The position numbers and the translations under genes are program-made. 64,000 bases of DNA from Roseococcus sp. (GTDB taxonomy: Bacteria > Pseudomonadota > Alphaproteobacteria > Acetobacterales > Acetobacteraceae): positions 1 through 64,000 of the forward strand of contig JAOAIK010000038.1 of assembly GCA_026414745.1 (NCBI GenBank). Reading direction: 5' to 3'. A model generated the notes under the pieces. That model was not told the origin of the DNA. It did no database searches and saw only the letters and a list, made by a program, of their open reading frames with translations. This document shows, in pieces, positions 11,661-55,079 of the stretch. Each line of letters opens with the position of its first letter. Position 1 is the stretch's first letter.

Positions 11661-12581
11661 ATGCCCGACAGCGCGCCCCACCTCCTGTGTCCCGGCTGCG
11701 GCGCCGCGCGGGCGCTGCCCGAGGCGGGGCCCTGGCTGGGCGGGGCGCTGGCCTGCGAGGCCTGCGGCTGGGCGCCGCCGCGCCAGGATGGGTTCGCCCT
11801 GCTCGCCCCCGCCCTGGCCGCCCAGGGTTCGGACTACGACCCGGCCGGATTCGCCGCGTTGCTGGCCGCCGAGCCCTGGCATTTCTGGTTCGCCCCCCGC
11901 GCGCGCCTGCTCGCGGGGCTGATCGCGCGGCATTTCCCGGCCGCCGAGAGCTTCCTCGAGGTGGGCTGCGGCACCGGCTATGTCACCGGCGTCATCGCCC
12001 GCGCCCGGCCCTGGCGGCGCGTGCTGGGTGCCGAGGTCTCGGCCGACGGGCTCGCCCATGCCGCGCGGCTGCTGCCGCCGGAGGTGGAGCTGATGCAGAT
12101 GGACGCGCGCGAGATGCCCTTCCGCGCGGCCTTCGACGTGATCGGCTGCTTCGACGTGCTGGAGCACATCGAGCAGGACCAGGAGGTGCTGCACCGCTTC
12201 GCCGCGGCGCTGCGCCCGGGGGGCGGGGTGGTGCTGGCCGTGCCGCAGCACATGTGGCTGTGGAGCGGGGCGGACGAGCACGCCCAGCACAAGCGCCGCT
12301 ACGCGCGCGGCGAGCTGGAGGGGCGCTGCCGCGCCGCCGGGCTCGAGGTGGCGGCGAGCCTCTCCTACAACAGCGTCACCCTGCCGCTGATGCTCGCTTC
12401 GCGCCTGCTGCCGCGGCGCGCGACGGCCGAGCAGGGCGCGCCTGACGAGATGAACCCGCCGCGCTGGCTGAACGCCCTGCTGCGCGCCGCGCTGCAGGCC
12501 GAGGTGGGAATGAGCCTCGCGGGGCTGCATCTGCCGCTGGGCGGCAGCCGGGTGGTGGTGGCGCGGAAGTCGGGGGCCTGA
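11661..12581 (+). CDS. SAM-dependent methyltransferase with N-terminal zinc ribbon
   Basis: The 306-residue protein opens with a four-cysteine knuckle (C10-x2-C13, C32-x2-C35) and then a class I methyltransferase domain. The SAM-binding motif LEVGCGTGYVTG is at 99-110, and FDVLEHIEQDQEVLHRF marks the post-II region. Such zinc-ribbon/methyltransferase proteins are common in polysaccharide loci. The target (sugar, lipid or small molecule) is unknown. It lies immediately upstream of a GT2 glycosyltransferase on the same strand, separated by 95 bp that hold a separate promoter. No Shine-Dalgarno is obvious before ATG 11661. Confidence 0.8.
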   Translation: MPDSAPHLLCPGCGAARALPEAGPWLGGALACEACGWAPPRQDGFALLAPALAAQGSDYDPAGFAALLAAEPWHFWFAPRARLLAGLIARHFPAAESFLEVGCGTGYVTGVIARARPWRRVLGAEVSADGLAHAARLLPPEVELMQMDAREMPFRAAFDVIGCFDVLEHIEQDQEVLHRFAAALRPGGGVVLAVPQHMWLWSGADEHAQHKRRYARGELEGRCRAAGLEVAASLSYNSVTLPLMLASRLLPRRATAEQGAPDEMNPPRWLNALLRAALQAEVGMSLAGLHLPLGGSRVVVARKSGA

Positions 12582-12640
12582 AGCGGTGTCTCTCCCCGCC
12601 CCGGGCCGGCGCCTGCTCGGCTTGTACAGGCGCTGGCCGA

Positions 12641-12670
12641 TTGGCCATTTGCCGGGTGGCGGCGTAGAAG
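12641..12670 (+). promoter_or_regulatory. Leaderless-type promoter of the GT2/formyltransferase pair
   Basis: TTGGCC (12641-12646), an 18-bp spacer and TAGAAG (12665-12670) end 6 nt before the ATG of the glycosyltransferase, so the first transcribed base would be the start codon. Only a weak ribosome site (AGAAG within the -10 box itself) is present. Assigned by eye. Confidence 0.45.
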
Positions 12671-12676
12671 CCGCTC

Positions 12677-13621
12677 ATGGCCCAGCCCGAACTCTCGGTC
12701 GTCACGACGCTCTACCGGTCCGCTCCCTTCCTCGCGGAGTTCCTGGCGCGCGCGACGGCAGCGGCCGAGGCGGCGAGCGCGTCGCATGAGATCGTGGTGG
12801 TGGACGACGGCTCGCCGGACGACGCTCTGGACATCGCCATCCGCGCCGCGCAGGCGGACCCTCGCATCCGCGTGATCGAACTGGCGCGCAACTTCGGCCA
12901 TCACGCCGCGATCCTGGCCGGCCTGACCCATGCCCGCGGCGAGCGCGTCTTCCTCGTCGATTCCGACCTCGAAGAGCCGCCGGAGCTGCTGCTGCGCTTT
13001 GCCGCCGCCCTGGAGGCCGAGGACGCGGACGTGGTCTATGGCTACCACGACCAGAAGGTGGGCTCGCGGATGCGCCAGTTCGCGAGCGGCCTGTTCTGGC
13101 GCCTGTTCAACCTGCTCTCGGAGACGCACACGCGGGAGAACATCTGCCATGTGCGGCTCATGCGCCGCGCCTATGTGGACGCGCTGCTCTCCCTGCCGGA
13201 GCGCAACATCTTCCTCGGCGGACTGTATTCGTGGCCCGGCTTCCGCCAAGTGCCGATGCGGGTGGAGCGGGTGATCAACCGCCCTGTCTCCACCTACAAC
13301 CTGCGCCGCCGGATCGCGCTGGCCGTCCGCTCCGTTGTCGCCTTCTCCGCGCGGCCCTTGCACCTCGTCTTCATGCTGGGTGCGGGCATCGCCGGCATCT
13401 CGCTGCTGGTGGCCTTGGCGACGCTGGCGCTGCGCCTGGTCTGGGGTTCGGAGATGCTGGTGGGCTTCGCCTCGATCATGATCTCGATCTGGTTCCTCGG
13501 CGGGCTCACCATCATGTCGCTCGGCGTGATCGGTCTTTACATCGCTCAACTCTACACCGAGGCGAAGGGACGCCCGCGCTGGCTTGTTCGCCGCATCCAC
13601 GGGGGACAGGGGCCAAGATGA
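12677..13621 (+). CDS. GT2 glycosyltransferase, polyprenyl-phosphate sugar synthase type (ArnC/DPM1-like)
   Basis: The 314-residue protein has a GT-A catalytic domain with VVDDGSPDD at 41-49 and the DSD metal motif at 95-97 in VFLVDSDLEEPPE. Two hydrophobic helices near the C-terminus (about 230-265 and 275-300) follow. This layout is typical of enzymes that load an activated sugar onto undecaprenyl phosphate at the cytoplasmic face, like ArnC and GtrB. Its stop overlaps the ATG of a formyltransferase by 4 nt, so the two are translated together. A close paralog (GT2 at 14951-15913) sits in opposite orientation 1.3 kb away and shares TLYRSAP and ELARNFGHH. The sugar is unknown; a 4-amino-4,6-dideoxy sugar is plausible from neighbours. 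Confidence 0.85.
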   Translation: MAQPELSVVTTLYRSAPFLAEFLARATAAAEAASASHEIVVVDDGSPDDALDIAIRAAQADPRIRVIELARNFGHHAAILAGLTHARGERVFLVDSDLEEPPELLLRFAAALEAEDADVVYGYHDQKVGSRMRQFASGLFWRLFNLLSETHTRENICHVRLMRRAYVDALLSLPERNIFLGGLYSWPGFRQVPMRVERVINRPVSTYNLRRRIALAVRSVVAFSARPLHLVFMLGAGIAGISLLVALATLALRLVWGSEMLVGFASIMISIWFLGGLTIMSLGVIGLYIAQLYTEAKGRPRWLVRRIHGGQGPR

Positions 13622-14307
13622 AGCGCCTCGCCTGGGCGGTCAGCGGAGAGGGCAGGGCGCTGGAGGCGGTCCTGCAGGCGAGCGATGCCGGGCTTCTTCC
13701 CGTCCGGGTCGTGGCCGTGGCCATCGATCGGCCCTCGCGGATTTCCGCCGTCGCAGAGGCGCGCGGCCTGCCCTGCCCCCTCATCGCGCCGGGGCCGTTG
13801 CCCTACCATCCGGACCTTGCGCGGCTCCTGGCCGCGACCGGGGCCGAGTGGCTCGGTCTCACCTTCAACCGGCTGCTTTCCACCGAAGTGATCGACCACA
13901 TGGAGGGGCGGATTTTCAACCTGCACCTCTCCCTGCTGCCGATGTTCCCCGGTTTCGGCGCCCTGCGCCGGGCCCTGGCCGAGGGCATGCGCATGACGGC
14001 GGTGACGGTGCATCTCGTGAACACGACGCTCGACCAGGGGCCGATCCTCGCCCAGGGCTGCGTGCCGGTGGCGCGGCGCGACACCCGGGCCACGCTGGGG
14101 CGGCGGCTGTTCGAGGCGGCCTTGCCGCTGCTGCTGCAGGTGGTGCGCAGCATCGGGCAGGGAGAGCTGCGTTTCACCCCCGCCACAGGGTTGGAATGGG
14201 AGAGAACCGATCGCGCCCCTGCCGCGCCCACGCCGCGCTTTCCCCTGGTCGACGAGGATCTGCTCGCCTTCGCCGAGGCGTATTGTGCGGCGCTGCCCGT
14301 GGCGTGA
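13618..14307 (+). CDS. Stand-alone formyltransferase (10-formyl-THF dependent, amino-sugar type)
   Basis: The 229-residue protein has a formyltransferase catalytic domain with the triad spacing N101, H103 (FNLHLSLLPMFPG) and D139 (TLDQGPILAQ). This is the same order as in purN, fmt and ArnA-N enzymes. Its length is close to a bare catalytic domain, without the C-terminal domain of methionyl-tRNA formyltransferase. ATGA overlap with the upstream GT2 gene implies a joint role. Most likely it N-formylates an amino sugar before or after lipid loading, as ArnA does for UDP-Ara4N. A GART/purN role is less likely given the partner. The substrate is inferred from context only. Confidence 0.78.
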   Translation: MKRLAWAVSGEGRALEAVLQASDAGLLPVRVVAVAIDRPSRISAVAEARGLPCPLIAPGPLPYHPDLARLLAATGAEWLGLTFNRLLSTEVIDHMEGRIFNLHLSLLPMFPGFGALRRALAEGMRMTAVTVHLVNTTLDQGPILAQGCVPVARRDTRATLGRRLFEAALPLLLQVVRSIGQGELRFTPATGLEWERTDRAPAAPTPRFPLVDEDLLAFAEAYCAALPVA

Positions 14308-14327
14308 GGCCGACCGCCGCCGGTCCT

Positions 14328-14954
14328 TCAGCCCCGCCGCACCAGCACGGTGAACTCCCACAGCCCGTAATCCTGCAGCAGCGCCACATGCCGGCCGTAG
14401 CGGTCGAGGCAGTGGCGCAGCATCGCGGCCGGGTCGGCGTAGTGCAGGTGCGGCCGGCGCTTCTCGGGGTCGGAGCAGAGGGAGAGCACGTTGAAGCCGA
14501 AGCCGCGCCGGCCGTTCCGCGCAAGGGTCTCGATCACGCCGAGCGTGTACTCGGCCCACTCCGCCTCCTCCGCCTCGCCCTTCACGTTCAGCACGCCCGA
14601 GGCGATGGCGTAGTCGGCCGGCGTATCGGGTTCGGCACCGACATGCCAGGAGACGCCCGGACCTTCGGGGTGGCGGGCGCGGGCGGCCTCGATCATCTCG
14701 GGCGCCACGTCCCAGCCCGCATAGGCGCCCAGATGGCCCTGGGCGCGCAGGAAATCGAGGAAATCCCCGTAGCCGCAGCCGAGATCGAGCACCGAGGCCT
14801 CGGGCTCGGCGCCGAGCAGGCGCAGGAACTGCGCGTGGCGCAGCCGCTGCGACTCCTCGCCGTTCCAGTCCACGCCGCGCGGGTTCGCCCCGTGCTCGGC
14901 CAGGCGTCCGGCATAGTAGCGCGCCACGCGATGCAGCAGCGCCTCCCGGTTCAT
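14328..14954 (-). CDS. SAM-dependent methyltransferase
   Basis: The 208-residue class I methyltransferase has SAM motif LDLGCGYGDFLDFL in the N-terminal half and a SGVLNVKGEAEEAEW segment in the core. It is convergent with the formyltransferase and starts by a 4-nt overlap (ATGA) with the stop of the GT2 gene upstream, so it is translationally coupled to a lipid-sugar synthase. A glycan or carrier-lipid O- or N-methylation role is plausible. The acceptor cannot be identified from sequence. Confidence 0.8.
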   Translation of the reverse strand: MNREALLHRVARYYAGRLAEHGANPRGVDWNGEESQRLRHAQFLRLLGAEPEASVLDLGCGYGDFLDFLRAQGHLGAYAGWDVAPEMIEAARARHPEGPGVSWHVGAEPDTPADYAIASGVLNVKGEAEEAEWAEYTLGVIETLARNGRRGFGFNVLSLCSDPEKRRPHLHYADPAAMLRHCLDRYGRHVALLQDYGLWEFTVLVRRG

Positions 14955-15913
14955 CGCACGGTTTCCCTGCGCGCCGCGACCTCCGTCCCCGCGCCCGCGG
15001 CGCGGTGCAGCCGGCGCAGATGGGTGTAGGGCCGGCGCTTCGACTCCTCGAGCAGCGCGGCGATGTAGATGCCGAGAATGCCGAGCACCAGCACGATCAG
15101 CCCGCCGAAGAACCAGACCGAGAGGAACACCGAGGTCCAGCCCGCCATCGCCACCCCGTGGGTGAGGTAGCGCAGCAGCAGCAGCAGCGCGACCGCGATG
15201 GCCAGGCCCGAGAGCGCGAGCCCGCTGTAGAAGACGAGGTAGAGCAGCCGCGTCGAGGTGGTGGTGACATGCTCCACCGCCATGCGGATGCGCCGCGACA
15301 GGGTGTAGGTGGTGGGCGAGAGGGAGAGCTTCGCCACCTCCATCGGCGCCTGGCGGAAGCCCGTCAGCACCCAGAGGTCCGACATCTGGAAGCTGCGGTC
15401 CTCGTGCGCCGTCAGGGCATCGACATAGTCGCGGCGCATCAGCCGGGCGGTGAGGAGGTTGCGCGGGATGCTGCGGTCGGACAGCGCGTCCATGAGCCGG
15501 TAGAAGGCCTCGCCGGTCACGCGCTCGAACCATCCGCCGCGGCGGGCGGGCTGAACGCCGTAGACCACGTCCCAGCCCTCGTCCATGAGCTTCTGGAGGA
15601 AGGCGGGGAGGGCTTCGGGCGGCTCCTCGAGGTCGCTGTCGAGCAGGAAGACGAGATCGCCCGTGGCGAGCTTGAGGCCGGTCATCATCGCCTTGTGGTG
15701 GCCGAAGTTGCGCGCGAGCTCGGCCACCACCACGCGCGGGTCGGCGGCCTGCAGGGCGAGGGCCAGCTGCAGGCTCTCGTCGGGCGACCCGTCATCGACG
15801 AGGATCATCTCGATCTCCCCGAACAGCGGCTCGGCCGCCGCCATGCAGCGGCGATGGAACTCCGCAAGGCCCGGGGCGGAACGGTAGAGAGTCGAAACGA
15901 TCGAGAGCTTCAC
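14951..15913 (-). CDS. GT2 glycosyltransferase, polyprenyl-phosphate sugar synthase type (paralog)
   Basis: The 320-residue paralog of the GT2 protein at 12677 begins with GTG at 15913 (KLSIVSTLYRSAPGLAEF). It has the acidic motifs VDDGSPDE and LLDSDLEEPPEALP, and two C-terminal membrane helices (about 230-265 and 270-300) with a basic tail. The fold predicts transfer of a sugar from a nucleotide donor to undecaprenyl phosphate. Its downstream partner is a methyltransferase, whereas the other copy pairs with a formyltransferase. The two probably load different sugars or act at different steps. Confidence 0.85.
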   Translation of the reverse strand: MKLSIVSTLYRSAPGLAEFHRRCMAAAEPLFGEIEMILVDDGSPDESLQLALALQAADPRVVVAELARNFGHHKAMMTGLKLATGDLVFLLDSDLEEPPEALPAFLQKLMDEGWDVVYGVQPARRGGWFERVTGEAFYRLMDALSDRSIPRNLLTARLMRRDYVDALTAHEDRSFQMSDLWVLTGFRQAPMEVAKLSLSPTTYTLSRRIRMAVEHVTTTSTRLLYLVFYSGLALSGLAIAVALLLLLRYLTHGVAMAGWTSVFLSVWFFGGLIVLVLGILGIYIAALLEESKRRPYTHLRRLHRAAGAGTEVAARRETVR

Positions 15914-15966
15914 GGGCGGTCCCGGCGCGGTGTGGGCACCGGCGGCACTAGACGAAAACCCCCTCC

Positions 15967-15995
15967 TTGGCGAGGGCCGCGCGCGCGCCTATCAG
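15967..15995 (+). promoter_or_regulatory. Promoter of the PhyH gene
   Basis: TTGGCG (15967-15972), a 17-bp spacer and TATCAG (15990-15995) lie upstream of the PhyH start. The leader would be about 20 nt and contains the GGAGAGGGGAG ribosome site. Box quality is good for this G+C-rich sequence. Confidence 0.45.
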
Positions 15996-16024
15996 GCGGG
16001 GCAGGAGAGGGGAGCCGGACGGGC

Positions 16025-16843
16025 ATGGACGCCACACCGCGCTACGGCGTGCGGATCGCCAACACCGTGCGCGACGCGACCGAGGAGGCGGCCGAGACGC
16101 TGCGCCTCGTCGGCTACGCCGTGGTGGATGCGGGGCTGAGCGAGGCCGAGCTGGAGGGGCTGCGCGAGGGCTTCGAGGCGCTGCGCCGCAAGGCCGCGAC
16201 CGACGAGCTCGCCGAGCTGCGCCGCCGCGTGGGCGAGGCCGATCTGCTGCGCTGCCCGCTCGCTGAGGATCCGCGCTTCCTCGCGCTCGCGGCCAACCCG
16301 CGCATCCTCGCGCTGTGCGAGGCGCTGATCGGCCCGGGCTTCATCCTCAACCAGCAGAATGGCATCGTGAACCCGGCGGGGACCGAGCGCTACAGCCAAT
16401 CCCCCTACCACCGCGACCTGCCCTACCAGCATTTCACCAGCAGCCGGCCCATCGCGCTCAATGCGCTGTTCTGCCTCGACCCCTTCACCGCCGAGAACGG
16501 CGCGACCTGGGTGATCCCCGCCTCGCACAAGGAGGAGGCCTTCCCCTCCGAGCCCGTGCTGCGCGCCCAGCGCCGCCAGGTGGAGGCGCCGGCGGGGAGT
16601 TTCCTCGTGCTCGACTGCATGCTCTGGCACGGCGGCGGGCAGAACCGCACGGATCGGGACCGGCGCGCGGTGAACCACGTCTACACCATCGCCATGATGC
16701 GCCAGCAGATCGACCTGCCCGCCTATCTCGGCGAGGGGTTCACCCGGGATCCGGCGCTGCGCCAGCTCCTCGGCTACCGTCATCCGCAGCCGCGCTCGGT
16801 GCGGGAGTATCTGGAGATGCAGGTGGCCCGGCGCGGGGTCTGA
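16025..16843 (+). CDS. Phytanoyl-CoA dioxygenase (PhyH) family Fe(II)/2-oxoglutarate oxygenase
   Basis: The 272-residue protein has the double-stranded beta-helix iron site: H129-x-D131 in YHRDLPY and distal H202 in WHGGGQNRT. Arg208 is suited to bind 2-oxoglutarate. PhyH-family enzymes hydroxylate aliphatic or sugar-linked substrates using O2. Here it lies inside the surface-sugar island, convergent with a WbqC-like gene (6-bp gap), so a glycan or lipid substrate is possible but unproven. A strong ribosome site precedes ATG 16025. Confidence 0.85.
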   Translation: MDATPRYGVRIANTVRDATEEAAETLRLVGYAVVDAGLSEAELEGLREGFEALRRKAATDELAELRRRVGEADLLRCPLAEDPRFLALAANPRILALCEALIGPGFILNQQNGIVNPAGTERYSQSPYHRDLPYQHFTSSRPIALNALFCLDPFTAENGATWVIPASHKEEAFPSEPVLRAQRRQVEAPAGSFLVLDCMLWHGGGQNRTDRDRRAVNHVYTIAMMRQQIDLPAYLGEGFTRDPALRQLLGYRHPQPRSVREYLEMQVARRGV

Positions 16844-16849
16844 CCCGCC

Positions 16850-17563
16850 TCACCCGCGCCGGCCGAGCAGCGCCGGCGCGGCGGGGCCGGTGTTGAGCAT
16901 GAGATCCACCACCGAGACGGCGGGCTCGAAGTCCCCCCAGAGCTGCGGATAGGGCGGGTAGCCCGAGTAGTCCATCCACGCCACCTCGATGCCGCGCCGC
17001 GCGAAGGGCGCGGGGTCGAGATAGGCCTGGGCCGCGGGCCCGGAGAGGTAGCGCGTCGCGCCTGTCGCCTCGGCGAGGGCCGCCAGGCGCTCCGAGGGGT
17101 CGAGGCGCGGCAGCTCGGCGCGCGGGATGTGGTCGGAATCGCGGCTGATGGCGAGGCCGAGGCCGAGCCGGGCGCAGAGGGCACGGATCAGCCGCTCGTT
17201 CATGCGGCTCAGCATCTCCTCCTCGGCGGCGGCGCGCAGCGTCGCCTCCAGCCAGGGGAAGACATCGGCGTAATGCTGTGCCCGGGCATAGGCGAGGGCG
17301 ATGGCCCGCAGGTGCTGGCCGACCCAGTCGCGGCCCTGGATGCGGGTCTCGTCCACCGCCTGATGGTATTTCCCCTTGGCCTCCACCGGCACGGTGATCC
17401 AGGCGGGGCCTTGCGGCGTCTTGATGCGATTGCGGTTGCGCCAGTCGCGGCGCGTGTACTGCACGCTGTCCAGGATCACCAGCGCATCGGCCTGGCGCAG
17501 CATGTCGAACCAGCCGCGCCAGGGGAGGTAGTTCGACTGGGTGACGACAACGGTGCGGCCCAC
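16850..17563 (-). CDS. WbqC-like family protein
   Basis: The 237-residue product begins at GTG 17563, just 5 nt after the stop of the RffA gene. It has the WbqC-family opening VVVTQSNYLPWRGWFDML, followed by RRDWRNRNRIKTPQGP and a C-terminal segment with SGPAAQAYLD and WMDYSGYPPYPQ. WbqC-like proteins occur in O-antigen and capsule clusters, often next to aminotransferases. A role in acylating amino sugars with amino acids has been proposed for the family, but function is not settled. Coupling to RffA supports action on the same 4-amino sugar. Confidence 0.8.
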   Translation of the reverse strand: MGRTVVVTQSNYLPWRGWFDMLRQADALVILDSVQYTRRDWRNRNRIKTPQGPAWITVPVEAKGKYHQAVDETRIQGRDWVGQHLRAIALAYARAQHYADVFPWLEATLRAAAEEEMLSRMNERLIRALCARLGLGLAISRDSDHIPRAELPRLDPSERLAALAEATGATRYLSGPAAQAYLDPAPFARRGIEVAWMDYSGYPPYPQLWGDFEPAVSVVDLMLNTGPAAPALLGRRG

Positions 17564-17568
17564 GCGCC

Positions 17569-18711
17569 TCAGCCCGGTCCGAGCACCTGCGCCAGCGCCG
17601 CGACGACCTGCTCCTGCTCCTCGGGCGTGAGCCGGGGATGCAGCGGCAGGCGGATGAGCCGCGCCGAGACGTCCTCCGTCACGCTCATCGGCCCCGCGGC
17701 GCGGCCGTAGCGCAGCCCCGCGGGCGCGGAGTGCAGGGGCACGTAGTGCATCACCGCGTTCACCCCGAGTTCGGCAAGGCGCGCGAGTGCGGGGTCGCGC
17801 TGCGCGGCATCGGGCACCAGCACGAAATAGATGTGGCCGTTGTGCCCGCATTCCTGGGGCACGCGCGGGCGGACGAGCCGGCCCGCCGCCTCCAGCGGCG
17901 CGAGCAGCGCATGGTAGCGCTCCCAGGCGGCGAGGCGCCGCGCCGTCACCTCCGGCCCGGCCTCGAGCTGGGCGAGGAGAAAGGCCGCCGTCAGCTCCGA
18001 GGGCAGGAAGGAGGAGCCGATGTCCACCCAGGTGTAGCGCGCCACTTCGCCGCGGGCGAACTGCGCGCGGTTGGTGCCCTTCTCCCAGACGATCTCCGCG
18101 CGCAGCGCAAGGTCGGGGTCGTTCACCAGCAGCGCGCCGCCCTCGCCCGAGATGAGGTTCTTCGTCTCGTGGAAGGAGATGGCCGCCGCCATGCCGAAGC
18201 TGCCGAGCGGCTTTCCGCGGAAGCTCGCGTGCAGGGCCTGGGCGGCGTCCTCCATGACGGCGAGGCCGTGGCGCGCCGCGATCTCCATGATCGCGTCCAT
18301 CTGCGCCGCCACCCCCGCGTAGTGCACGACCGAGATGGCCCTGGTGCGCGGCGTGATGGCGGCCTCGATGGCGCCCTCGTCGATGTTCAGCGTGTCGGGG
18401 CGGATGTCGACGAAGACCGGCACGCCGCCGCGCAGCACCACCGCATTGGCGGTGGAGCAGAAGGTGAAGGAGGGCATGATGACCTCATCCCCCGGCCCGA
18501 TGCCGGCGAGGATGGCGGCCATCTCCAGCGCGCCGGTGGCGGAATGCGTCAGCAGCGCGCGGGCCGCGCCGGTGCGCTCCTCGAGCAGCGCCTGGCAGCG
18601 CCGGGTGAACTCCCCGTTGCCCGAGAGCTTGCCCCGGTGCAGCGCGGCACGGACATGCTCGAACTCGGCGCCGACCAGGGTGGGCCAGTTGAAGGGGATG
18701 TGCGCGCGCAT
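17569..18711 (-). CDS. rffA: dTDP-4-amino-4,6-dideoxygalactose transaminase (WecE/RffA)
   Basis: This PLP enzyme converts dTDP-4-keto-6-deoxyglucose plus glutamate to dTDP-4-amino-4,6-dideoxygalactose (dTDP-Fuc4N). The 380-residue sequence follows E. coli WecE closely by eye: IPFNWP start, GKLSGNGEFTRRCQ, the DEVIMPSFTFCSTANA segment, PLP lysine K184 in SFHETKN, and WEKGTNRAQFARGEV. Length matches (376 in E. coli). It is the first gene of a pair with the WbqC-like protein and follows a propeller gene and a NeuD-like acyltransferase on the same strand. No rmlA/rmlB is in the window, so the dTDP-sugar precursor must come from elsewhere. Confidence 0.92.
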   Translation of the reverse strand: MRAHIPFNWPTLVGAEFEHVRAALHRGKLSGNGEFTRRCQALLEERTGAARALLTHSATGALEMAAILAGIGPGDEVIMPSFTFCSTANAVVLRGGVPVFVDIRPDTLNIDEGAIEAAITPRTRAISVVHYAGVAAQMDAIMEIAARHGLAVMEDAAQALHASFRGKPLGSFGMAAAISFHETKNLISGEGGALLVNDPDLALRAEIVWEKGTNRAQFARGEVARYTWVDIGSSFLPSELTAAFLLAQLEAGPEVTARRLAAWERYHALLAPLEAAGRLVRPRVPQECGHNGHIYFVLVPDAAQRDPALARLAELGVNAVMHYVPLHSAPAGLRYGRAAGPMSVTEDVSARLIRLPLHPRLTPEEQEQVVAALAQVLGPG

Positions 18712-18754
18712 GGCGCGCGCTTAGAGGGGAACGCGGGGGGCGTAAAGCGGGCCG

Positions 18755-19666: not shown

Positions 19667-19671
19667 CCCGC

Positions 19672-20334: not shown

Positions 20335-20341
20335 GCCGCGG

Positions 20342-20371
20342 CGCTTACCACGCGGCGGCGGGGCCCGGCCA
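20342..20371 (-). promoter_or_regulatory. Candidate near-leaderless promoter of the acyltransferase-propeller-rffA run
   Basis: On the minus strand TGGCCG (20371-20366), 18 bp and TAAGCG (20347-20342) end 7 nt before the start codon. There is no Shine-Dalgarno sequence, so a leaderless or very short-leader transcript is possible. The -35 match is weak. Confidence 0.3.
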
Positions 20372-20441
20372 GAGCACCCGGGCTGGACAGGGGCGCGGCG
20401 GTCGGGCACTCGCCCGCGCATGAGCCTCCCCGCCTTCCGCC

Positions 20442-21074
20442 ATGGCTGAGCGCAGCACCGGCGCCTGGGCCCTGCTGCGCCACCCCCGCGCCTATGAGGC
20501 GCTGCAGCGCCTGCTCGGCGCCAATGAGCGCCGCCGCCGCTTCGTTGCGGAGGTGCTGCGCCCGCGCCCCGGCGAGCGCGTGCTCGACATCGGCTGCGGC
20601 ACCGCGGCGCTGGCGCGCCACCTCGGGCCCGTGACTTATGTCGGCTTCGAGCCCAACGCGGCGTATGTGGCGCGCGGGCGGGCCGAGAATGCGGGGCGCG
20701 ACGTGACGCTGCACGCCGGCTATTTCGACGCCGCGGCGGCCGAAACCCTCGCGCCCTTCGACCTCGTGATCGTCTCGGCCGTGCTGCACCACATGGATGA
20801 CGCGCAGGGGCAGGAGCTGTTTCGCCTGCTCGCGCGCGTCACCAAGCCCGAGGGCCGGGTGGTGACGCTCGACAACGTCCATGTGCCCGACCAGAACCCC
20901 ATCGCGCGCTGGCTGATCAGCCTCGACCGCGGGCGCAACGTGCGCGACCCCGAGGGCTATGCGGCGCTGGCCCGGCCGCATTTCGCCGAGGTGACGGGCG
21001 AGGTGAGCCACCGCCGCCTGCCGCCCTATACCTACTGGATCATGCGCTGCCGCGGTCCGCGGCCGGGCGCGTGA
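20442..21074 (+). CDS. SAM-dependent methyltransferase (UbiE-like class I)
   Basis: The 210-residue class I methyltransferase has SAM motif LDIGCGTAALARHL at about 47-60 and the post-II segment FDLVIVSAVLHHMDDAQG. It is divergent from the acyltransferase and convergent with a large membrane protein (13-bp gap). The arrangement and the C-terminal LPPYTYWIMRC resemble methyltransferases acting on lipid-linked or polyketide-like substrates, but the acceptor is not identifiable. Confidence 0.8.
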   Translation: MAERSTGAWALLRHPRAYEALQRLLGANERRRRFVAEVLRPRPGERVLDIGCGTAALARHLGPVTYVGFEPNAAYVARGRAENAGRDVTLHAGYFDAAAAETLAPFDLVIVSAVLHHMDDAQGQELFRLLARVTKPEGRVVTLDNVHVPDQNPIARWLISLDRGRNVRDPEGYAALARPHFAEVTGEVSHRRLPPYTYWIMRCRGPRPGA

Positions 21075-21087
21075 GGGCCGGGGCGGC

Positions 21088-23136
21088 TCAGGGCGCGGGT
21101 TCGGCCGGCCCCGCGGCCAGCAGCAACGCCACCGTGCCGAAGGGCTGGAAGGTCAGCCCGCGCGCCAGCAGCCGGCCATCCCCGGCGCGGTAGCGCACGC
21201 GGCAGGCGATGCGCCCGGCCTCCGGCGCGCAGCCCGCCTCCTCCAGCGCGGCGATGGGGCGCGGGCCGGGGCCGACGAGGGCGGGCGAGGCGCGCGCCTC
21301 GGGGCTCGGCGGCGGCGCGCCGGGCGGGGCGGCCGCCTCCAGCCCCTCGAGCCGGGCGAGGATCGCCTCGATCTGCCCCGGCAGCGGCGGGGGCGCGCCG
21401 TAGTGCGGGTTGGAGAGCAGGGCGCGCCCCACGGCGAAGCCGGGCACGCCCGGAAGCGCGATGGTCACGACCGGCCCCTCCTCGACGAGGAGGCCCAGTT
21501 CGCGCAGCGCCTGCGCCCCGGCGAGGCACTCTGCCGGCTCCGTGCACAGGGTGATCAGCGGCAGGGGGTGGGGGCCGACATTGGCGATGTGCTCCTGCCC
21601 CCAGCCCTCGTCGATGCCCGGCATGGCGAAGCCGAGCGCGAGGCGGTGCCAGCCCAGGGTCGCGGCCAGCGTGTCGAGGAAGTTCAGCCGCAGCCGGCTG
21701 CCGCGGAAGGCGATGTCGTGCAGGAAGGCGTCGCCGAGCCCATGGGCGCGGGTGTAGCCCTCGCGCGCCACCCAGATCACGAAGCTGCCGCCCAGACCGC
21801 CTGTGCGCGCAAGGACGCGGTGGAACTCCGCCAGCGCGCGCATGTGCGCCGCCTGGTCCGGCGCGCCGGGGAAGCGATAGGCGCGCGCCGTGTCGGCGTT
21901 CAACGCCCCCGCCAGCATCAGCCCGAGTGCCACCGCCGGCAGGGCCGGGCGCAGCCGGCCGGCGGCGGCCAGCGCCAGCCCCGCCGCCATCACACCCCCG
22001 GCCAGGGCCCAGGCGGCAAGGCCCAGCGCCGCCTCCTGCCGCCAGGGCAGCGGCGGCAGCGCGCCGAGCCCGAGCGCCAGCCCGAGCGCGAGGACCAGCA
22101 GCGCGAGCCCTCGCCGCCCGGGCAGCGCCCCCGCGCGCTCCACCCGCGCGAGGAACAGCATCAGCGCGGGGGCGAGGGCGAGTTGCAGGTAGCTCGCGTA
22201 GAAGTGGAACTGCAGCAGCGAGGCCGTGCGGAAGAACCAGGCCGCCAGCGGCAGCAGCGGCACCAGGATGGCGGCGAGAAGGGCGAGGCCCCGCCGCCCC
22301 TCGGCGCGCAGCACCGGCCGGGCCAGCAGCGGCAGGGCCAGCAGCAGCGGCAGGATCAGCAGCCGCGGCGCGAAGGGCAGCCAGGCGGCGGCGGGCAGGG
22401 CGAAGCCGTCATAGGTGCCGTCCACTGACAGGCGCAGCGGCGTCCAGAAGGCCTGCACGAACAGGAAGGGCAGGCCGAGCGCCCGCGCCGCGAGCCCGAG
22501 GGCGAGGAAGGCGGCCAGCACGCCCGCGAGCCCCGCCGCGCCGTTCGCCAGCACCGCCCGCCAGCCCGGCGCGCGCAGCAGCGGCACCGCCGCCACCGCC
22601 AGCGCCGCCATGCCGCCGCCCAGCGCATGGGCGCAGAGGGCGAGCACCAGCAGCGCCCCCGCCAGCGCATGGCGCAGCACCCCCGGCGGCGCCACGGGCC
22701 GCAGCAGGCAGGCGAGGGCGAGCAGCCCCAGCGCCATGCAGGGCCCGTCCACATAGCCGCGCGCGAAGGCGCCGATCCACAGCGGGTTCGCCCCCATCGC
22801 CACCAGCAGCACCGCCCGCGCCGCCGCCCCGCGCAGCAGCGCGCCCGAGAGCAGGTGCAGGGCGATCAGCCCCAGCAGGTAGAAGCCGCTGACCAGCAGC
22901 GCCTGCGCCAGCACGGGCTCGAACAGGCGGTAGAGCAGGAAGCCGGGCAGCACATAGGTCAGCCGCGCGCCGTGGTAGTCGAGGTCGCGGTGCGCCGCGT
23001 TCTCGGGCGCGAGCAGGAACCAGTGGATGTAGAGCCCCGGGTCCACCCAGCCGAGCGGCGGATGCAGGTGGAACAGCCCCGACCAGAACAGCCCGAGCAG
23101 CCCCGCGAACAGCAGGGGCGTGGCGAGGCGCGCCAT
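21088..23136 (-). CDS. Large polytopic membrane protein, GT-C glycosyltransferase-like (paralog A)
   Basis: The 682-residue protein has about twelve hydrophobic helices up to about residue 400 and a soluble C-terminal domain of about 270 residues. The first predicted periplasmic loop starts HPPLGWVDPGLYIHWF with an acidic residue at 32, which recalls the catalytic Asp/Glu of the first loop in GT-C enzymes such as ArnT and GT39. A second shared motif is ARGYVDGPCMA. It is paralogous to the protein at 24137-26554. The gene starts 3 nt after the stop of the UPF0104 gene, in one operon. A transferase using polyprenyl-phosphate sugars made by the GT2 proteins is plausible; direct family assignment is uncertain. 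Confidence 0.55.
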   Translation of the reverse strand: MARLATPLLFAGLLGLFWSGLFHLHPPLGWVDPGLYIHWFLLAPENAAHRDLDYHGARLTYVLPGFLLYRLFEPVLAQALLVSGFYLLGLIALHLLSGALLRGAAARAVLLVAMGANPLWIGAFARGYVDGPCMALGLLALACLLRPVAPPGVLRHALAGALLVLALCAHALGGGMAALAVAAVPLLRAPGWRAVLANGAAGLAGVLAAFLALGLAARALGLPFLFVQAFWTPLRLSVDGTYDGFALPAAAWLPFAPRLLILPLLLALPLLARPVLRAEGRRGLALLAAILVPLLPLAAWFFRTASLLQFHFYASYLQLALAPALMLFLARVERAGALPGRRGLALLVLALGLALGLGALPPLPWRQEAALGLAAWALAGGVMAAGLALAAAGRLRPALPAVALGLMLAGALNADTARAYRFPGAPDQAAHMRALAEFHRVLARTGGLGGSFVIWVAREGYTRAHGLGDAFLHDIAFRGSRLRLNFLDTLAATLGWHRLALGFAMPGIDEGWGQEHIANVGPHPLPLITLCTEPAECLAGAQALRELGLLVEEGPVVTIALPGVPGFAVGRALLSNPHYGAPPPLPGQIEAILARLEGLEAAAPPGAPPPSPEARASPALVGPGPRPIAALEEAGCAPEAGRIACRVRYRAGDGRLLARGLTFQPFGTVALLLAAGPAEPAP

Positions 23137-23139
23137 GGC

Positions 23140-24048
23140 TCAGCCCCGCTCGGCCGCGCGGCGGCCGCGCAGCAGGAACAGCCCGTGCAGCAGCCCGATG
23201 CCGATGACCAGCGGCGTCAGCAGCCGCAGCAGCAGCGCCCCCGCATCGGCGAGGCCCGGCTCCACCCCGAGCCAGAGCAGGAGCCCGCGGGTGGAGACCT
23301 CGGCCACCCCGATTCCCCCCGGCACCAGCGAGACGGTGACCGAGAGGGTGACCAGCACCACCACCAGCGCGGTGTGGGCGAAGCCGAGCCCGATGCCCGC
23401 CGCGGCGAAGGTGGTCTGCCACATCAGCACCACCATCAGCCATTTGGCGACGGTGCAGGCGCCCAGCACCAGCATGCGCGCGGCCGAGGGCCGGTACTGC
23501 GCGAGCGGGCCGAGTGCGGCGGCCATCCGCGGGGGCAGCCGCGCCCCGGCCAGCCGCCGCAGCAGGAAGGGCGCCAGCGCCACCGCCAGCGCCAGCAGCC
23601 CCGAGGCCGCCAGCAGCCAGAGGCCCGAGGCGCCGGCCAGCCCGAAGCCGATGGCGCCGATGCCGAAGAGCACCGCCGCATCGGCCAGCCGCTCCACCGC
23701 GAAGGCGCCGCCCAGCGAGGCGTAGTCCTTGCCGGTAAGGTCGCGCGCGAATTTCAGCTTCAGCGCCTCGCCCGCCTGCACCGGGGTGGCGGCGGCGGTG
23801 GCCAGCGCGAGCGCCGTCTGCACATGGGTGCGCCAGAGCAGCCCGGGCGTGAAGGCGATGCCCGCCACCGCCGCCCAGCGCAGCGAGCGCACGAGGAAGA
23901 GCAGCAGCCCCAGCGGCAGGCAGACCTCGAGGAAGAGTCCGATGTCGAAGCGCAGCAGCGCGCGGCCCACCATCGGCCAGTCGAAGGCATAGAGCGCCCA
24001 GGCGCAGGCGAGGGTGCAGACGAGGACGGGCCAGAGGCGCCGCGCCAT
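23140..24048 (-). CDS. UPF0104 / lysylphosphatidylglycerol-synthase transmembrane-domain protein
   Basis: The 302-residue polytopic protein of about eight helices has the family's SLVPGGIGVAEVSTRGLLL segment near residue 240 and TPVQAGEALKLKFARD near 85. The fold is that of the MprF flippase domain. Related proteins occur in glycolipid and hopanoid loci and are thought to move lipids across the inner membrane. It sits between two paralogous GT-C-like membrane proteins, consistent with flipping or handling their lipid-linked donor. No soluble synthase domain is attached. Confidence 0.75.
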   Translation of the reverse strand: MARRLWPVLVCTLACAWALYAFDWPMVGRALLRFDIGLFLEVCLPLGLLLFLVRSLRWAAVAGIAFTPGLLWRTHVQTALALATAAATPVQAGEALKLKFARDLTGKDYASLGGAFAVERLADAAVLFGIGAIGFGLAGASGLWLLAASGLLALAVALAPFLLRRLAGARLPPRMAAALGPLAQYRPSAARMLVLGACTVAKWLMVVLMWQTTFAAAGIGLGFAHTALVVVLVTLSVTVSLVPGGIGVAEVSTRGLLLWLGVEPGLADAGALLLRLLTPLVIGIGLLHGLFLLRGRRAAERG

Positions 24049-24078
24049 GGACAGGGTCTCCGGGAGGGGGCGCGGTGC

Positions 24079-24111
24079 CGCGCCGGGCAGGGGTTGCCCC
24101 AGCCCGGCGCG
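24079..24111. terminator. Intergenic hairpin with 10-bp arms
   Basis: CGCGCCGGGC (24079-24088) and GCCCGGCGCG (24102-24111) form a perfect stem around a 13-nt loop that itself contains GGGG/CCCC. It lies in the 88-bp gap between two genes of the same operon, so it may act as an attenuator or processing site rather than a full stop. No T-run follows on the minus strand. Confidence 0.35.
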
Positions 24112-24136
24112 TTTGGCAACCGGCGCGCCCGCCGCC

Positions 24137-26554
24137 TCAGCGCGGCCACGAGAGGCCGAAGCGGGCCAGCCAGGCCGCGCGCAGCCGGGCCGTGGCCATC
24201 AGGCAGGCGGCCTCGTCATGGCGGCGCCCGGCCGCCTCGGCCGCCGCCAGCTCGGCTGCCACGCGGTCATCGGCGAAGGCCCCCGTGAGCGCGCCCGCGA
24301 GCGCCCGCGCGGCGGCGAGTTCCACCTCGCAGCCCATGGCGATGCGGGGCAGATGGCCGGGCCGCCAGTCGAGGTCGAAGGCCCGCGCGAGGGCGAGGCC
24401 CGCCTCGAGGCAGGCCACCGGCCCCTGCTCGGCCTGGGCGCGGAGCATGGCGGCGAAGGCGGCCGCCGCCTCGGGCGGGCGCGGCACCGCCTCCGGCCGG
24501 TCGAGCCAGAAGCCGGCGCGGCGCAGCTCCGACCGGCACAGCAGCGCGGCGAGCGCGGGCTCGAGCGCGGCGAGGGCGGGCTCGGCCGGGCCCACCCCAT
24601 GCGGCAGCGCGAGGCGGCCGAGGCGTTCGAAATGCAGGCGGCGCGCCTCCAGCCTCCCGTCCTCGCGGCGCAGCAGGGCGCGGCAGAGGCGCTGCGGCCC
24701 CGCCTCGATGCAGGCGAAATACTCGAGCGCCGGGGGCGCGCCCAGCACCGCGGCCAGCACATGGGCCGCCTGCTCGGCGCTCGGCGCCTCATCGGCGCCG
24801 GGGAAGGCGAGGCGGTGGCGCTCCACCCGCAGCCGTGCGGCGCCCGGGCTGTCGAGGGTCGCCTCCGCCACCGGCTCGGGCCGCAGGCCCAGGCGCTGGA
24901 GCAGGGCGCGCCCGGCCGCGCAGTCCTCCGCCGCGGGGCAGAGGAGGAGGATGTCGCGCCGCTCGCCCGCCCCCGGCTCGGTCAGCCGGTTCCAGCGGAA
25001 GCCGGGATCGAGGGCGGGCATGCGGAGGCCAAGCGCGGGGGCGTCCCAGCCCAGCGAGGCCGCCAGCGAATCCACCGCGTTCAGCCGCAGGCTCTGCCCG
25101 CCATAGGCAACCGGATGGATCCCTCCCGGCGGGGGCGAGAGCCCCTCGCGCGACAGCCAGAGCAGGGGCGGGGGGGCGAGGCCGCCGCTTTGCGCCAGGA
25201 AGCCACGGAACTCGGCCAGCAGGCGCTGCTGCGCGGCGAAATCCGCCTCGCCGGGGCGCGCGAAGACGCTCGCCGTATCGCGGGTGAAGGCCCCCGCCGC
25301 GCCGAGCAGCGCGAGCGTGGCGAGCAGCGCCGCCCCCGGCCGGGCGAGGGCGCGGGCGAACACCGCCGCGCCCAGCGCCGCCAGCGCGATCCCCCAGCCG
25401 ATCCAGCCGAGGAGCGGCGCCTCGCGCGCCTCGAGCGGCAGCAGCCATCCCAGCCCGAGCCCGCCGGCGAGCGGCAGCAGCACGGCCCAGACGGGCAACC
25501 CGCCGCGCGCCTCGGCCGCCGCCGCCAGCAGCGCGAGGCCCGGGATCACCGCAAGCCAGGCATAGCTCGCATAGAAGGCGAACTGCGCCATGAAACCGTG
25601 CCAGAGCAGGTCGGCGGCCAGCAGCGGGGCGATCATCGCCGCGGCCGCGGCGGCCATGGCGCGCGGGGCGGCCGGCCCGCCGCGCGCGGCCAGCCAACCC
25701 GTCACGGCGAGCCAGGCCGCCGCCGGGAACAGCGCCACGCGCACCGTGCCGGGCAGCCATTCGGCCAGGGGCATGTTGAAGGGCGTGGGGCCGGCCGCGG
25801 CCAGCGCCTGCCCGATGCGGCCCAGCGCGGGCGCGAAAAAGAGGAAGGGAAACCCGGCCAGGACCGCCGCCAGGGCGGTGAGCAGCAGCGCCGCCAACGC
25901 GCCGCCGGCGGCGGCCCGCCCGCGCCCGGGCAGATCGCCCTCGGCCCGCCCCCGCACCCACAGCGCGGCCGCGAGGCCAAGCAGCGCGAGCCCACCGCCG
26001 AAGGGATGGGTGAGGAAGGCCAGCATGCCGCAGGCCCCCGCGCCCAGCGCGCCGTGCCGGCCCGGCAGGCGCAGCAGCAGGGCTAGGCCGAGCAGGCCGA
26101 AGGCCATGCAGGGCCCGTCCACATAGCCGCGCGCGATGGCGGCGAGCCAGACCGGGTTCAGCGCCACCGAGGCGGTCAGCGCCGCGCGCAGCGCCACCCC
26201 GCGCACCACCGCGCCGGTCAGCGCATGGATCCCGGCCAGCGCCAGGGCCTGGAACAGCAGCACCAGCGCCATCTGCCCCGCGACAGGCCCGAACAGCGCG
26301 TGCAGCAGCCGCCCCGCCACCACGAAAGGTGCGCGGGCGGAGTGGTAGTCGCCCCCGCCGGGCGCCAGCGCCGGCGCGGGTTCGAGGAACCAGCGGATGT
26401 AGAGCCCGGGATCCACCCAGCCGATCGGGGGATGGAGCTGGAAGGGGCCGAGCAGGAGAAGCAGCAGAAGCCCGGACAGCAGCAGCGCCTCGCGCCGGAG
26501 GCGGCCGGCACGCGGCCCTGAACTCGGGAAAGGCAGGACGGGCCGCGTCGTCAT
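24137..26554 (-). CDS. Large polytopic membrane protein, GT-C glycosyltransferase-like (paralog B)
   Basis: The 805-residue paralog of the 21088-23136 protein shares QLHPPIGWVDPGLYIRWFL (acidic residue at 48), DYHSAR and ARGYVDGPCMAFGLLGLAL. It has about twelve membrane helices followed by a soluble C-terminal domain of some 400 residues, longer than in paralog A. ATG 26554 and ATG 26569 are both possible and neither has a good ribosome site; 26554 is chosen as nearer the first hydrophobic helix. A lipid-sugar-dependent transferase function is inferred from topology and from the nearby GT2 and UPF0104 genes. No family motif proves it. Confidence 0.55.
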   Translation of the reverse strand: MTTRPVLPFPSSGPRAGRLRREALLLSGLLLLLLLGPFQLHPPIGWVDPGLYIRWFLEPAPALAPGGGDYHSARAPFVVAGRLLHALFGPVAGQMALVLLFQALALAGIHALTGAVVRGVALRAALTASVALNPVWLAAIARGYVDGPCMAFGLLGLALLLRLPGRHGALGAGACGMLAFLTHPFGGGLALLGLAAALWVRGRAEGDLPGRGRAAAGGALAALLLTALAAVLAGFPFLFFAPALGRIGQALAAAGPTPFNMPLAEWLPGTVRVALFPAAAWLAVTGWLAARGGPAAPRAMAAAAAAMIAPLLAADLLWHGFMAQFAFYASYAWLAVIPGLALLAAAAEARGGLPVWAVLLPLAGGLGLGWLLPLEAREAPLLGWIGWGIALAALGAAVFARALARPGAALLATLALLGAAGAFTRDTASVFARPGEADFAAQQRLLAEFRGFLAQSGGLAPPPLLWLSREGLSPPPGGIHPVAYGGQSLRLNAVDSLAASLGWDAPALGLRMPALDPGFRWNRLTEPGAGERRDILLLCPAAEDCAAGRALLQRLGLRPEPVAEATLDSPGAARLRVERHRLAFPGADEAPSAEQAAHVLAAVLGAPPALEYFACIEAGPQRLCRALLRREDGRLEARRLHFERLGRLALPHGVGPAEPALAALEPALAALLCRSELRRAGFWLDRPEAVPRPPEAAAAFAAMLRAQAEQGPVACLEAGLALARAFDLDWRPGHLPRIAMGCEVELAAARALAGALTGAFADDRVAAELAAAEAAGRRHDEAACLMATARLRAAWLARFGLSWPR

Positions 26555-51900: not shown

Positions 51901-51910
51901 GGACACGCCC

Positions 51911-55063: not shown

Positions 55064-55079
55064 CGCATGCCTCCTTCCC

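What the first reader, a model, noticed from the sequence alone, without database searches (positions are those of the whole stretch)
11661..26554. Arn-like surface-sugar island assembled from separate parts
The sequence shows, within 15 kb, an NDP-sugar 4-aminotransferase (rffA), a stand-alone formyltransferase fused by ATGA overlap to a polyprenyl-phosphate-type GT2, a second such GT2, a NeuD-like acyltransferase, a WbqC-like protein, a UPF0104 flippase-type protein and two GT-C-like membrane proteins. The known Arn pathway (ArnB, ArnA formyltransferase, ArnC, flippase, ArnT) uses the same logic but with a UDP-pentose. Here the sugar would be a dTDP-4-amino-4,6-dideoxyhexose. I infer a system that decorates a lipid or glycan with an N-acylated Fuc4N-type sugar. 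Methyltransferases and a PhyH dioxygenase could add further decoration.
Basis: partly seen in the sequence, partly recalled or inferred. Interest (0 to 1): 0.75.

Follow-up and report, generated by a model that had tools for sequence, protein, structure and literature searches.

The report
Widespread cassette for decorated amino sugars
A 15-kb island carries a gene set, found in many bacterial phyla, that probably builds an unusual sugar carrying an amino acid and attaches it to the cell surface through a lipid carrier; its least understood protein resembles the enzyme thought to join cysteine to an amino sugar in bacillithiol.

Summary
In 85 propeller-centred loci from many phyla, WbqC, ArnC/GtrB-type GT2, this methyltransferase, NeuD and a DegT aminotransferase recur; 46 of 85 have all six families. 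In 39 WbqC-centred loci the aminotransferase is in 27 and NeuD in 20; in 39 control stretches 0 and 1. Flippase genes (SMR, GtrA, UPF0104) are in 44 of 85, so Arn-like lipid-carrier logic is plausible. Two same-genus genomes lack the island between the same flanks. New lead: the WbqC model's best solved match is BshC, the putative cysteine ligase of bacillithiol synthesis (Z 13.4), and E. coli O121, whose Qui4N carries N-acetylglycyl, has WbqC between a sugar aminotransferase and an acetyltransferase. I propose that WbqC adds an amino acid to the 4-amino group of dTDP-Fuc4N. Sequence profiles do not link WbqC to BshC; acceptor and amino acid are unknown.

The parts
11661..12581 (+). SAM methyltransferase (MT1), accessory
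   Evidence: Methyltransf_23 E 1e-17; start ATG; also in Rubritepida
12677..13621 (+). GT2a, polyprenyl-phosphate sugar transferase of GtrB/ArnC/PgfS type
   Evidence: GtrB 5ekp E 3.5e-49 and ArnC 9hwj E 2.5e-40 over nearly the full length; NCBIfam PgfS 188 bits, ArnC 147 bits, both under cut-off
13618..14307 (+). PurN-type formyltransferase paralog, ATGA overlap with GT2a; seen only here and in Rubritepida
   Evidence: PF00551 E 6e-26; N101, H103, D139 kept, R11/S13/N14 of PurN changed; 1 of 85 related loci
14328..14954 (-). small SAM methyltransferase MT2, core of cassette; start overlaps the GT2b stop
   Evidence: Methyltransf_23 domain; 62 of 85 loci
14951..15913 (-). GT2b, ArnC/GtrB-type polyprenyl-phosphate sugar transferase, core of cassette
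   Evidence: PF00535; ArnC 9hwj E 8.6e-40, GtrB 5ekp E 1.7e-39; family in 70 of 85 loci
16049..16843 (+). PhyH-type Fe(II)/2-oxoglutarate dioxygenase, frequent accessory; start not determined
   Evidence: PF05721 E 6e-30; 28 of 85 loci
16850..17545 (-). WbqC, proposed amino-acid ligase acting on the 4-amino sugar, core of cassette; start not determined
   Evidence: PF08889 235 bits; model pLDDT 95.6 with BshC 4wbd Z 13.4, rmsd 3.2, 216 aligned; 73 of 85 loci
17569..18711 (-). RffA/WecE, dTDP-4-keto-6-deoxyglucose 4-aminotransferase, core of cassette
   Evidence: NF008687 545 bits over cut-off 375; 6blg E 1.2e-124; DegT profile in 71 of 85 loci
18755..19666 (-). five-bladed beta-propeller protein without Pfam family, core of cassette
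   Evidence: model pLDDT 94.7; glycoside hydrolase BT_0996 and mannoside phosphorylases Z 28; no Pfam; bait of the 85 loci
19672..20334 (-). NeuD/PglD-type acyltransferase, core of cassette
   Evidence: TIGR03570 173.7 bits over cut-off 160.8; best named solved relatives are PglD-type acetyltransferases; 78 of 85 loci
20442..21074 (+). SAM methyltransferase (MT3), accessory
   Evidence: Methyltransf_23 E 2e-14
21088..23136 (-). large multi-pass membrane protein, candidate GT-C transferase
   Evidence: about 12 hydrophobic stretches; no Pfam, no PDB match; related proteins in 6 of 85 loci
23140..24048 (-). UPF0104 / LPG_synthase_TM protein, candidate flippase
   Evidence: PF03706 E 1e-19; no SMR or GtrA gene in the window; 2 of 85 loci
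24137..26554 (-). second large multi-pass membrane protein, homologous to 21088-23136, candidate GT-C transferase; start uncertain
   Evidence: about 8 hydrophobic stretches; each protein finds the Rubritepida counterpart of the other at about E 2e-81

Best explanation
A horizontally variable island carries a standing cassette (WbqC, GT2, methyltransferase, NeuD, propeller, RffA) that makes an elaborately N-substituted dTDP-4-amino-4,6-dideoxyhexose and hands it to a lipid carrier. Supported by homology: RmlA, RmlB and RffA give dTDP-Fuc4N; an ArnC/GtrB-type GT2 would move the finished sugar to polyprenyl phosphate. Inferred: WbqC joins an amino acid to the 4-amino group, as BshC and MshC are thought to do on glucosamine; NeuD and MT2 acylate and methylate it (compare MshD and NmbA in mycothiol and N-methyl-bacillithiol); UPF0104 here, or SMR/GtrA elsewhere, flips the lipid-linked sugar; the large multi-pass proteins transfer it to a surface glycan or lipid. 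The formyltransferase and PhyH are add-ons that vary the product. The propeller's role is unknown; a GH130-like binding or transfer role is a guess.
For: Recurrence of the six families across phyla, often in the same order, with controls: in 39 WbqC-centred loci DegT aminotransferase 27, NeuD 20, propeller 13; in 39 control stretches 0, 1, 0. Clustering of unlabelled neighbours brings in SMR, GtrA, RmlA and RmlB; a flippase gene is in 41 of 70 loci with GT2 and 3 of 15 without (Fisher p 0.0095, loci not independent). RffA, GT2 and NeuD are assigned by strong homology. WbqC model: BshC Z 13.4 over 216 of 231 residues, next row Z 6.8. E. coli O121: rfbB, rfbA, DegT, WbqC and GNAT acetyltransferase in a row; of the other genes among the 14 between galF and gndA only asnB (asparagine synthase) is an amide-forming enzyme, and it is accounted for most simply by the amidated GalNAcA of that O-antigen (PMC7555982, passage), while the Qui4N carries N-acetylglycyl (PMC3210612, passages). 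A match over at least 80% of that wbqC is found in only 13 of 5426 E. coli genomes (blastn).
Against: Profile-profile comparison finds no sequence link between WbqC and BshC (probability 0.2%), and Foldseek alone gives only E 0.018, so the link rests on one aligner and one model. BshC activity itself had not been shown in vitro according to a 2015 review (PMC4360819, passages). O121 WbqC is only 24% identical to the window's, and O121 has Wzx and Wzy, not this lipid route; its asnB cannot be excluded as the glycine-joining enzyme by annotation alone. In the WbqC-centred set GT2 is in only 9, MT2 in 7, SMR and GtrA in 1 each of 39, so the lipid-carrier part goes with the propeller-type cassette, not with WbqC in general. 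There only 16 of 27 loci with an aminotransferase have NeuD, and GNAT is no more frequent than in controls (4 and 4 of 39). The membrane proteins have no assigned family, and multi-pass proteins are not enriched in the WbqC-centred set (11 of 39; control 15 of 39). Acceptor, amino acid and propeller function are unknown.
Confidence: 0.5

Rival explanations
1. One reading: an Arn analogue in which the formyltransferase formylates dTDP-Fuc4N so that the ArnC-like GT2 can load it on undecaprenyl phosphate, followed by transfer to lipid A or a glycan.
For: ATGA-coupled GT2a and formyltransferase; the formyltransferase keeps the catalytic triad but has lost PurN's GAR phosphate loop, and the genome has a separate purMN; ArnC homology.
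Against: Formyltransferase in 1 of 85 related loci; in 384 other class genomes the only matches at E 1e-25 are two PurN beside purM; no ArnA C-terminal domain; RffA is not ArnB; ArnD not looked for.
Confidence: 0.15
2. The cassette makes an ordinary building block of an O-antigen, exopolysaccharide or capsule; GT2 adds it to a growing glycan and the neighbouring membrane proteins are unrelated or Wzx/Wzy-like.
For: WbqC and an aminotransferase also occur in O-antigen loci such as E. coli O121 with Wzx and Wzy; 41 of 85 loci have no flippase gene of the three kinds sought; in the WbqC-centred set GT2 is in 9 of 39 only.
Against: Both GT2 proteins are nearly full-length ArnC/GtrB homologues with a membrane part; flippase genes go with GT2.
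Confidence: 0.25
3. WbqC is not a ligase but another sugar-modifying or non-catalytic protein with a HUP/Rossmann-like fold, and the amino group is simply acylated by NeuD.
For: No sequence link to BshC; other enzymes of that fold class follow at Z 6.8 and below; NeuD alone could acetylate a 4-amino sugar, as its PglD relatives do.
Against: The gap from Z 13.4 to 6.8; the O121 cluster has both an acetyltransferase and WbqC and its sugar has N-acetylglycyl.
Confidence: 0.35

Closest known systems
Arn pathway (aminoarabinose addition to lipid A)
   Same: 4-aminotransferase, ArnC-type GT2, flippase and large membrane transferase candidates; lipid-carrier logic
   Different: dTDP-hexose instead of UDP-pentose; no ArnA-type enzyme in the island; the formyltransferase is not conserved; WbqC, NeuD, methyltransferase and propeller have no Arn counterpart that I know of
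Three-component (Gtr-type) extracytoplasmic glycosylation, PMC11127046 (passages read)
   Same: polyprenyl-phosphate GT, small flippase (an SMR protein in the decaprenyl-phosphate-arabinose prototype) and GT-C transferase
   Different: here the donor is made by a dedicated amino-sugar cassette; the GT-C identity is unproven
E. coli O121 O-antigen cluster (Qui4N with N-acetylglycyl)
   Same: rfbB, rfbA, DegT aminotransferase, WbqC and N-acetyltransferase side by side
   Different: Qui4N in a cluster with Wzx and Wzy; GNAT instead of NeuD; no gene annotated like the propeller or MT2; its family-2 glycosyltransferase was not classified (no profiles were run on this cluster)
Bacillithiol and mycothiol synthesis (BshC, MshC, MshD, NmbA); PMC4360819 and PMC6282198, passages
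   Same: amino acid joined to the amino group of a sugar, then acetylated or N-methylated; WbqC model resembles BshC
   Different: WbqC shows no sequence similarity to BshC and is less than half its length; substrate here would be a nucleotide sugar
PurN (GAR formyltransferase)
   Same: family and N, H, D triad of the island formyltransferase
   Different: R11, S13 and N14, conserved in 31 of 31 PurN-type proteins, are E, R, A

Membership tests
dTDP-Fuc4N transaminase (WecE/RffA) | score over the curated equivalog cut-off | tested here: met
   NF008687 545 bits, cut-off 375; 6blg E 1.2e-124
dTDP-Fuc4N transaminase (WecE/RffA) | substrate supply by RmlA and RmlB in the genome | tested here: met
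   both over cut-off on contig C7
Arn pathway | ArnB-type aminotransferase | tested here: not met
   NF008658 210 bits, cut-off 631; ArnB 1mdo only E 1.5e-52
Arn pathway | ArnA formyltransferase with C-terminal domain, conserved in the pathway | tested here: not met
   229 aa, PurN best in PDB; 1 of 85 loci
Arn pathway | ArnC-type GT2 | tested here: inconclusive
   strong homology but 147 bits against an equivalog cut-off of 529 for GT2a; GtrB equally close
Arn pathway | ArnD deformylase | not tested
   not searched for
Arn pathway | ArnT transferase | tested here: inconclusive
   no Pfam match for either membrane protein, no PDB match for 21088-23136
Three-component glycosylation | polyprenyl-phosphate GT2 of GtrB type | tested here: met
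   GtrB 5ekp E 3.5e-49 (GT2a) and 1.7e-39 (GT2b)
Three-component glycosylation | flippase gene (SMR or GtrA) | tested here: inconclusive
   none in the window; UPF0104 candidate; SMR or GtrA in relatives: 30 and 13 of 85
Three-component glycosylation | GT-C transferase | tested here: inconclusive
   multi-pass proteins without family
WbqC (PF08889) | score over the gathering cut-off | tested here: met
   235 bits, cut-off 21.3
BshC (PF10079) | sequence-profile similarity | tested here: not met
   hhalign probability 0.2%; PF10079 not among the families matched by the 61 members
BshC (PF10079) | Rossmann-like core fold | tested here: met
   4wbd Z 13.4, rmsd 3.2, 216 aligned; Foldseek E only 0.018
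BshC (PF10079) | amino-acid ligase activity on an amino sugar | not testable with these tools
   needs enzymology
GH130/GH43-type glycosidases and phosphorylases | five-bladed propeller fold | tested here: met
   Z up to 28.3 (5mt2), 28.0 (9fj8)
GH130/GH43-type glycosidases and phosphorylases | Pfam glycosidase match or family catalytic acids | tested here: inconclusive
   no Pfam match at E 1; catalytic residues not mapped
PurN | GAR phosphate loop together with the catalytic triad | tested here: not met
   triad kept, loop residues changed

The most novel reading that the evidence does not exclude
WbqC is the founding member of a minimal, BshC-like class of amino-acid ligases that act on nucleotide-bound 4-amino sugars, and the six-gene cassette is a cross-phylum machine that makes aminoacylated, capped and methylated sugars and exports them on polyprenyl phosphate, the glycan counterpart of bacillithiol and mycothiol chemistry.
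Probability: 0.45. Interest if true: 0.78.

Novelty: new variant of a known kind. Interest (0 to 1): 0.62.

Why it matters
Amino acids on bacterial surface sugars are known from chemistry (N-acetylglycyl and 3-hydroxybutyryl-alanyl on Qui4N, PMC3210612, passages). Of 12 papers in the library that hold the word WbqC, I opened three that concern the protein: one calls it functionally uncharacterised, two say only that it may act in O-antigen production (PMC5532660, PMC5507510, PMC7848895; passages). A testable assignment would explain the family (37 of 337 class genomes), give a marker to predict such glycans from genomes, and add a new donor type to lipid-carrier glycosylation.

Tried and rejected
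Formyltransferase as marker for related loci: rejected. In 150 family genomes 148 have a match at E 1e-5, the best outside the own genome E 1.9e-23; 31 of these matches, used as a PurN set, share the GAR loop. In the 385 class genomes the two foreign matches at E 1e-25 lie next to purM. Named plasmid matches were PurN, ArnA or formyltetrahydrofolate deformylase, many rows without annotation. With the island formyltransferase as the only seed of the profile, one of 39 WbqC-centred and one of 39 control stretches also gave a match at E 1e-10; I did not look at these two and take them for PurN-like proteins.

WbqC-BshC by sequence: tried with Pfam on 61 members and with hhalign; negative. PDB by sequence: no match for WbqC or for the membrane protein 21088-23136.

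GNAT as a general replacement for NeuD: not enriched (4 of 39 in both sets). Multi-pass proteins as a sign of GT-C: enriched in the propeller-centred set (56 of 85) but not in the WbqC-centred one (11 of 39; control 15 of 39); the measure is crude.

Count caveats. Close relatives are included (for example seven Pseudomonas and four Mesorhizobium), many are metagenome bins, several contigs are short, and one locus is Rubritepida with the same island. The two Chloroflexi loci (L115, L123) showed the propeller gene alone. 'RffA' in the counts means a DegT profile at E 1e-10, which also finds other sugar aminotransferases (a second one in this window). A first labelling gave 45 loci with all six families, the later one 46. 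Five of 39 WbqC loci are shorter than 12 kb because of contig ends. Controls are 38 arbitrary stretches of genomes of the WbqC-centred set and one of the window's own genome; some genomes gave several stretches.

Literature searches. WbqC together with formyltransferase, aminotransferase and glycosyltransferase, and three of Qui4N, glycyl, gene cluster, WbqC, found no paper. Nine of the 12 papers were not opened. Only the open library was searched, so the WbqC proposal may exist elsewhere. PMC7389260 was seen in a listing only. Recalled, from no call: the catalytic roles of N, H and D in formyltransferases, the ArnD step, the family labels GH130/GH43 where the entry title does not give them, the accession numbers of the O121 genomes (then checked), and that STEC O121 is on control lists.

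Full report
What is there. The window is contig C56 of a 3.2-Mb, 63-contig genome of about 74% G+C. Between a PEPcase-like gene (8786-11662) and a TctC gene (26726-28141) lie fourteen genes. On the minus strand, in transcription order: a large membrane protein (24137-26554), UPF0104, a second large membrane protein, NeuD, a Pfam-less protein, RffA, WbqC, GT2b and the small methyltransferase MT2. On the plus strand: MT1, GT2a, the formyltransferase, PhyH and MT3.

It is an island. Two same-genus genomes (G044, G124) keep PEPcase, the heptose epimerase, DUF1028, TctC and NUDIX genes in order, but in the stretch between PEPcase and the epimerase they hold other genes and none of the island genes. 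Rubritepida flocculans DSM 14296 has all fourteen at the same site.

It is not a chance assembly. An alignment of the Pfam-less protein found 184 relatives in the genome collection, of which the best 80 were fetched. Together with five plasmid loci this gave 85 loci from Alpha-, Beta-, Gamma- and Deltaproteobacteria, Bacteroidota, Nitrospirae, Omnitrophota, Planctomycetes, Chlamydiae, Actinobacteria and (propeller gene alone) Chloroflexi, as named in the record titles. Profile counts: NeuD 78, WbqC 73, DegT aminotransferase 71, ArnC/GtrB-type GT2 70, MT2 62, PhyH 28, formyltransferase 1, UPF0104 2, the large membrane proteins 6. All six core families are present in 46 of 85. A common order is WbqC, GT2, MT2, NeuD, propeller, then RffA; NeuD lies next to the propeller gene in 60 of the 78 loci that have it. 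As a reverse test I took the WbqC genes found in 337 class genomes (40 places in 37 genomes) and read up to 19.5 kb around the 39 that are not the window's own. DegT aminotransferase was in 27, NeuD in 20, propeller in 13, GT2 in 9, MT2 in 7, SMR and GtrA in 1 each; in 39 control stretches 0, 1, 0, 0, 0, 0 and 0. So WbqC with an aminotransferase is the widest association; the full cassette with its lipid-carrier genes is narrower.

The precursor. RffA is over the equivalog cut-off for dTDP-4-amino-4,6-dideoxygalactose transaminase, and its closest solved relative is that enzyme (6blg, E 1e-124), far ahead of perosamine synthase and ArnB. RmlA and RmlB are present on contig C7, near genes that read like RmlC, GmhA and an ABC-2 type permease (my reading of the translations). 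RmlB- and RmlA-like genes are also neighbours of the cassette elsewhere (28 and 18 of 85; controls 5 and 1 of 39). A dTDP-Fuc4N-type sugar is therefore well supported.

The lipid carrier. Both GT2 proteins match ArnC and GtrB structures over almost their whole length. Clustering of unlabelled neighbours, without prior choice of families, brought up an SMR-type protein and GtrA (names by my reading of the sequences and of the EamA annotations). SMR is in 30, GtrA in 13 and UPF0104 in 2 of 85 loci; only one locus has two kinds; a flippase gene is in 41 of 70 loci with GT2 and 3 of 15 without (Fisher p 0.0095; loci are not independent). In this window only UPF0104 is available. The large membrane proteins have no Pfam match, and the one tested has no PDB match; GT-C remains a guess.

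The formyltransferase. It is PurN-like. Compared with 31 PurN-type proteins of other genomes it keeps N101, H103 and D139 but has E, R and A in place of the invariant R11, S13 and N14 of the phosphate loop. The genome's own purMN is on contig C1. So it is probably a working formyltransferase with another substrate, but it belongs to this island and Rubritepida, not to the cassette in general.

WbqC. The family is called functionally uncharacterised in print (PMC5532660, passage). The AlphaFold model (pLDDT 95.6) was compared with solved structures: BshC of Bacillus subtilis stands out at Z 13.4 (216 residues, 3.2 A), the next rows being mostly tyrosyl-tRNA synthetases and pantothenate synthetases at 6.8 and less. 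Foldseek ranks BshC first too, but only at E 0.018, and profile comparison with six BshC proteins is negative. BshC is the presumed enzyme that joins cysteine to the amino group of glucosamine-malate; a 2015 review notes that its activity had not been shown in vitro (PMC4360819, passages). Independent support comes from E. coli O121. A review gives N-acetylglycyl as a substituent of Qui4N with the O121 structure as its reference (PMC3210612, passages). The O-antigen cluster of O121 strain RM8352 has rfbB, rfbA, a DegT aminotransferase, WbqC and a GNAT acetyltransferase in a row. Of the remaining genes only asnB is annotated as an amide-forming enzyme, and the amidated GalNAcA reported for O121 (PMC7555982, passage) is its natural product; so WbqC is the best candidate for adding glycine, though annotation alone does not prove it. 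A match covering at least 80% of that wbqC was found in 13 of 5426 E. coli genomes, five of them named O121, one named O103, seven without a serogroup in the name; more distant wbqC genes would have been missed by this DNA search. The simplest reading is aminotransferase, then glycine by WbqC, then acetyl by GNAT. By analogy, in the present cassette WbqC would add an amino acid, and NeuD and MT2 would cap it. Mycothiol (MshC then MshD, PMC4360819) and N-methyl-bacillithiol (NmbA on the cysteine nitrogen, PMC6282198, passages) follow the same chemistry. This step is inference.

The propeller. The model (pLDDT 94.7) is a five-bladed propeller like those of glycoside hydrolase BT_0996, mannoside phosphorylases and family-43 enzymes (Z 28 and below). 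Strongly conserved residues include R44, H23, R232 and N286, but I did not map the catalytic acids of any glycosidase family.

Verdict. Observation confirmed; interpretation partly supported. The Arn comparison fits the carrier logic and fails for the part it leaned on. The interest lies in a conserved cassette that I found described in none of the papers searched, and in a testable function for WbqC.

Noticed in passing
window 11660-11663: The PEPcase-like gene (-) and MT1 (+) as read here share a CATG, so two divergent genes would start within four bases; one of the starts is probably further in.
   Followed up: partly
window 8786-11662: 958-aa protein with only a partial, weak PEPcase match (residues 338-578, 66 bits); present in both same-genus genomes examined.
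   Followed up: no
window 50899-53044: A second NAD-dependent epimerase/dehydratase and DegT aminotransferase pair, below the equivalog cut-offs of the families listed: perhaps a second amino sugar.
   Followed up: partly
L238-L242 (IMG/VR contigs): All five viral-collection matches have NeuD upstream of the propeller gene on the same strand, within about 1.5 kb; L238 also has WbqC, MT2, DegT, RmlB and a GT2. Whether these contigs are truly viral was not tested.
   Followed up: partly
window 28613-29590: ADP-glyceromanno-heptose 6-epimerase over the TIGR02197 cut-off, at the island's conserved flank: the genome probably makes heptose-containing LPS.
   Followed up: partly
window 26726-28141, 33403-34422; L234: Several TctC (tripartite tricarboxylate transporter) binding-protein genes (similar translations).
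   Followed up: no
window 54203-58006: PEP mutase-like gene, FMN dehydrogenase and phosphonate-type ABC transporter genes.
   Followed up: no
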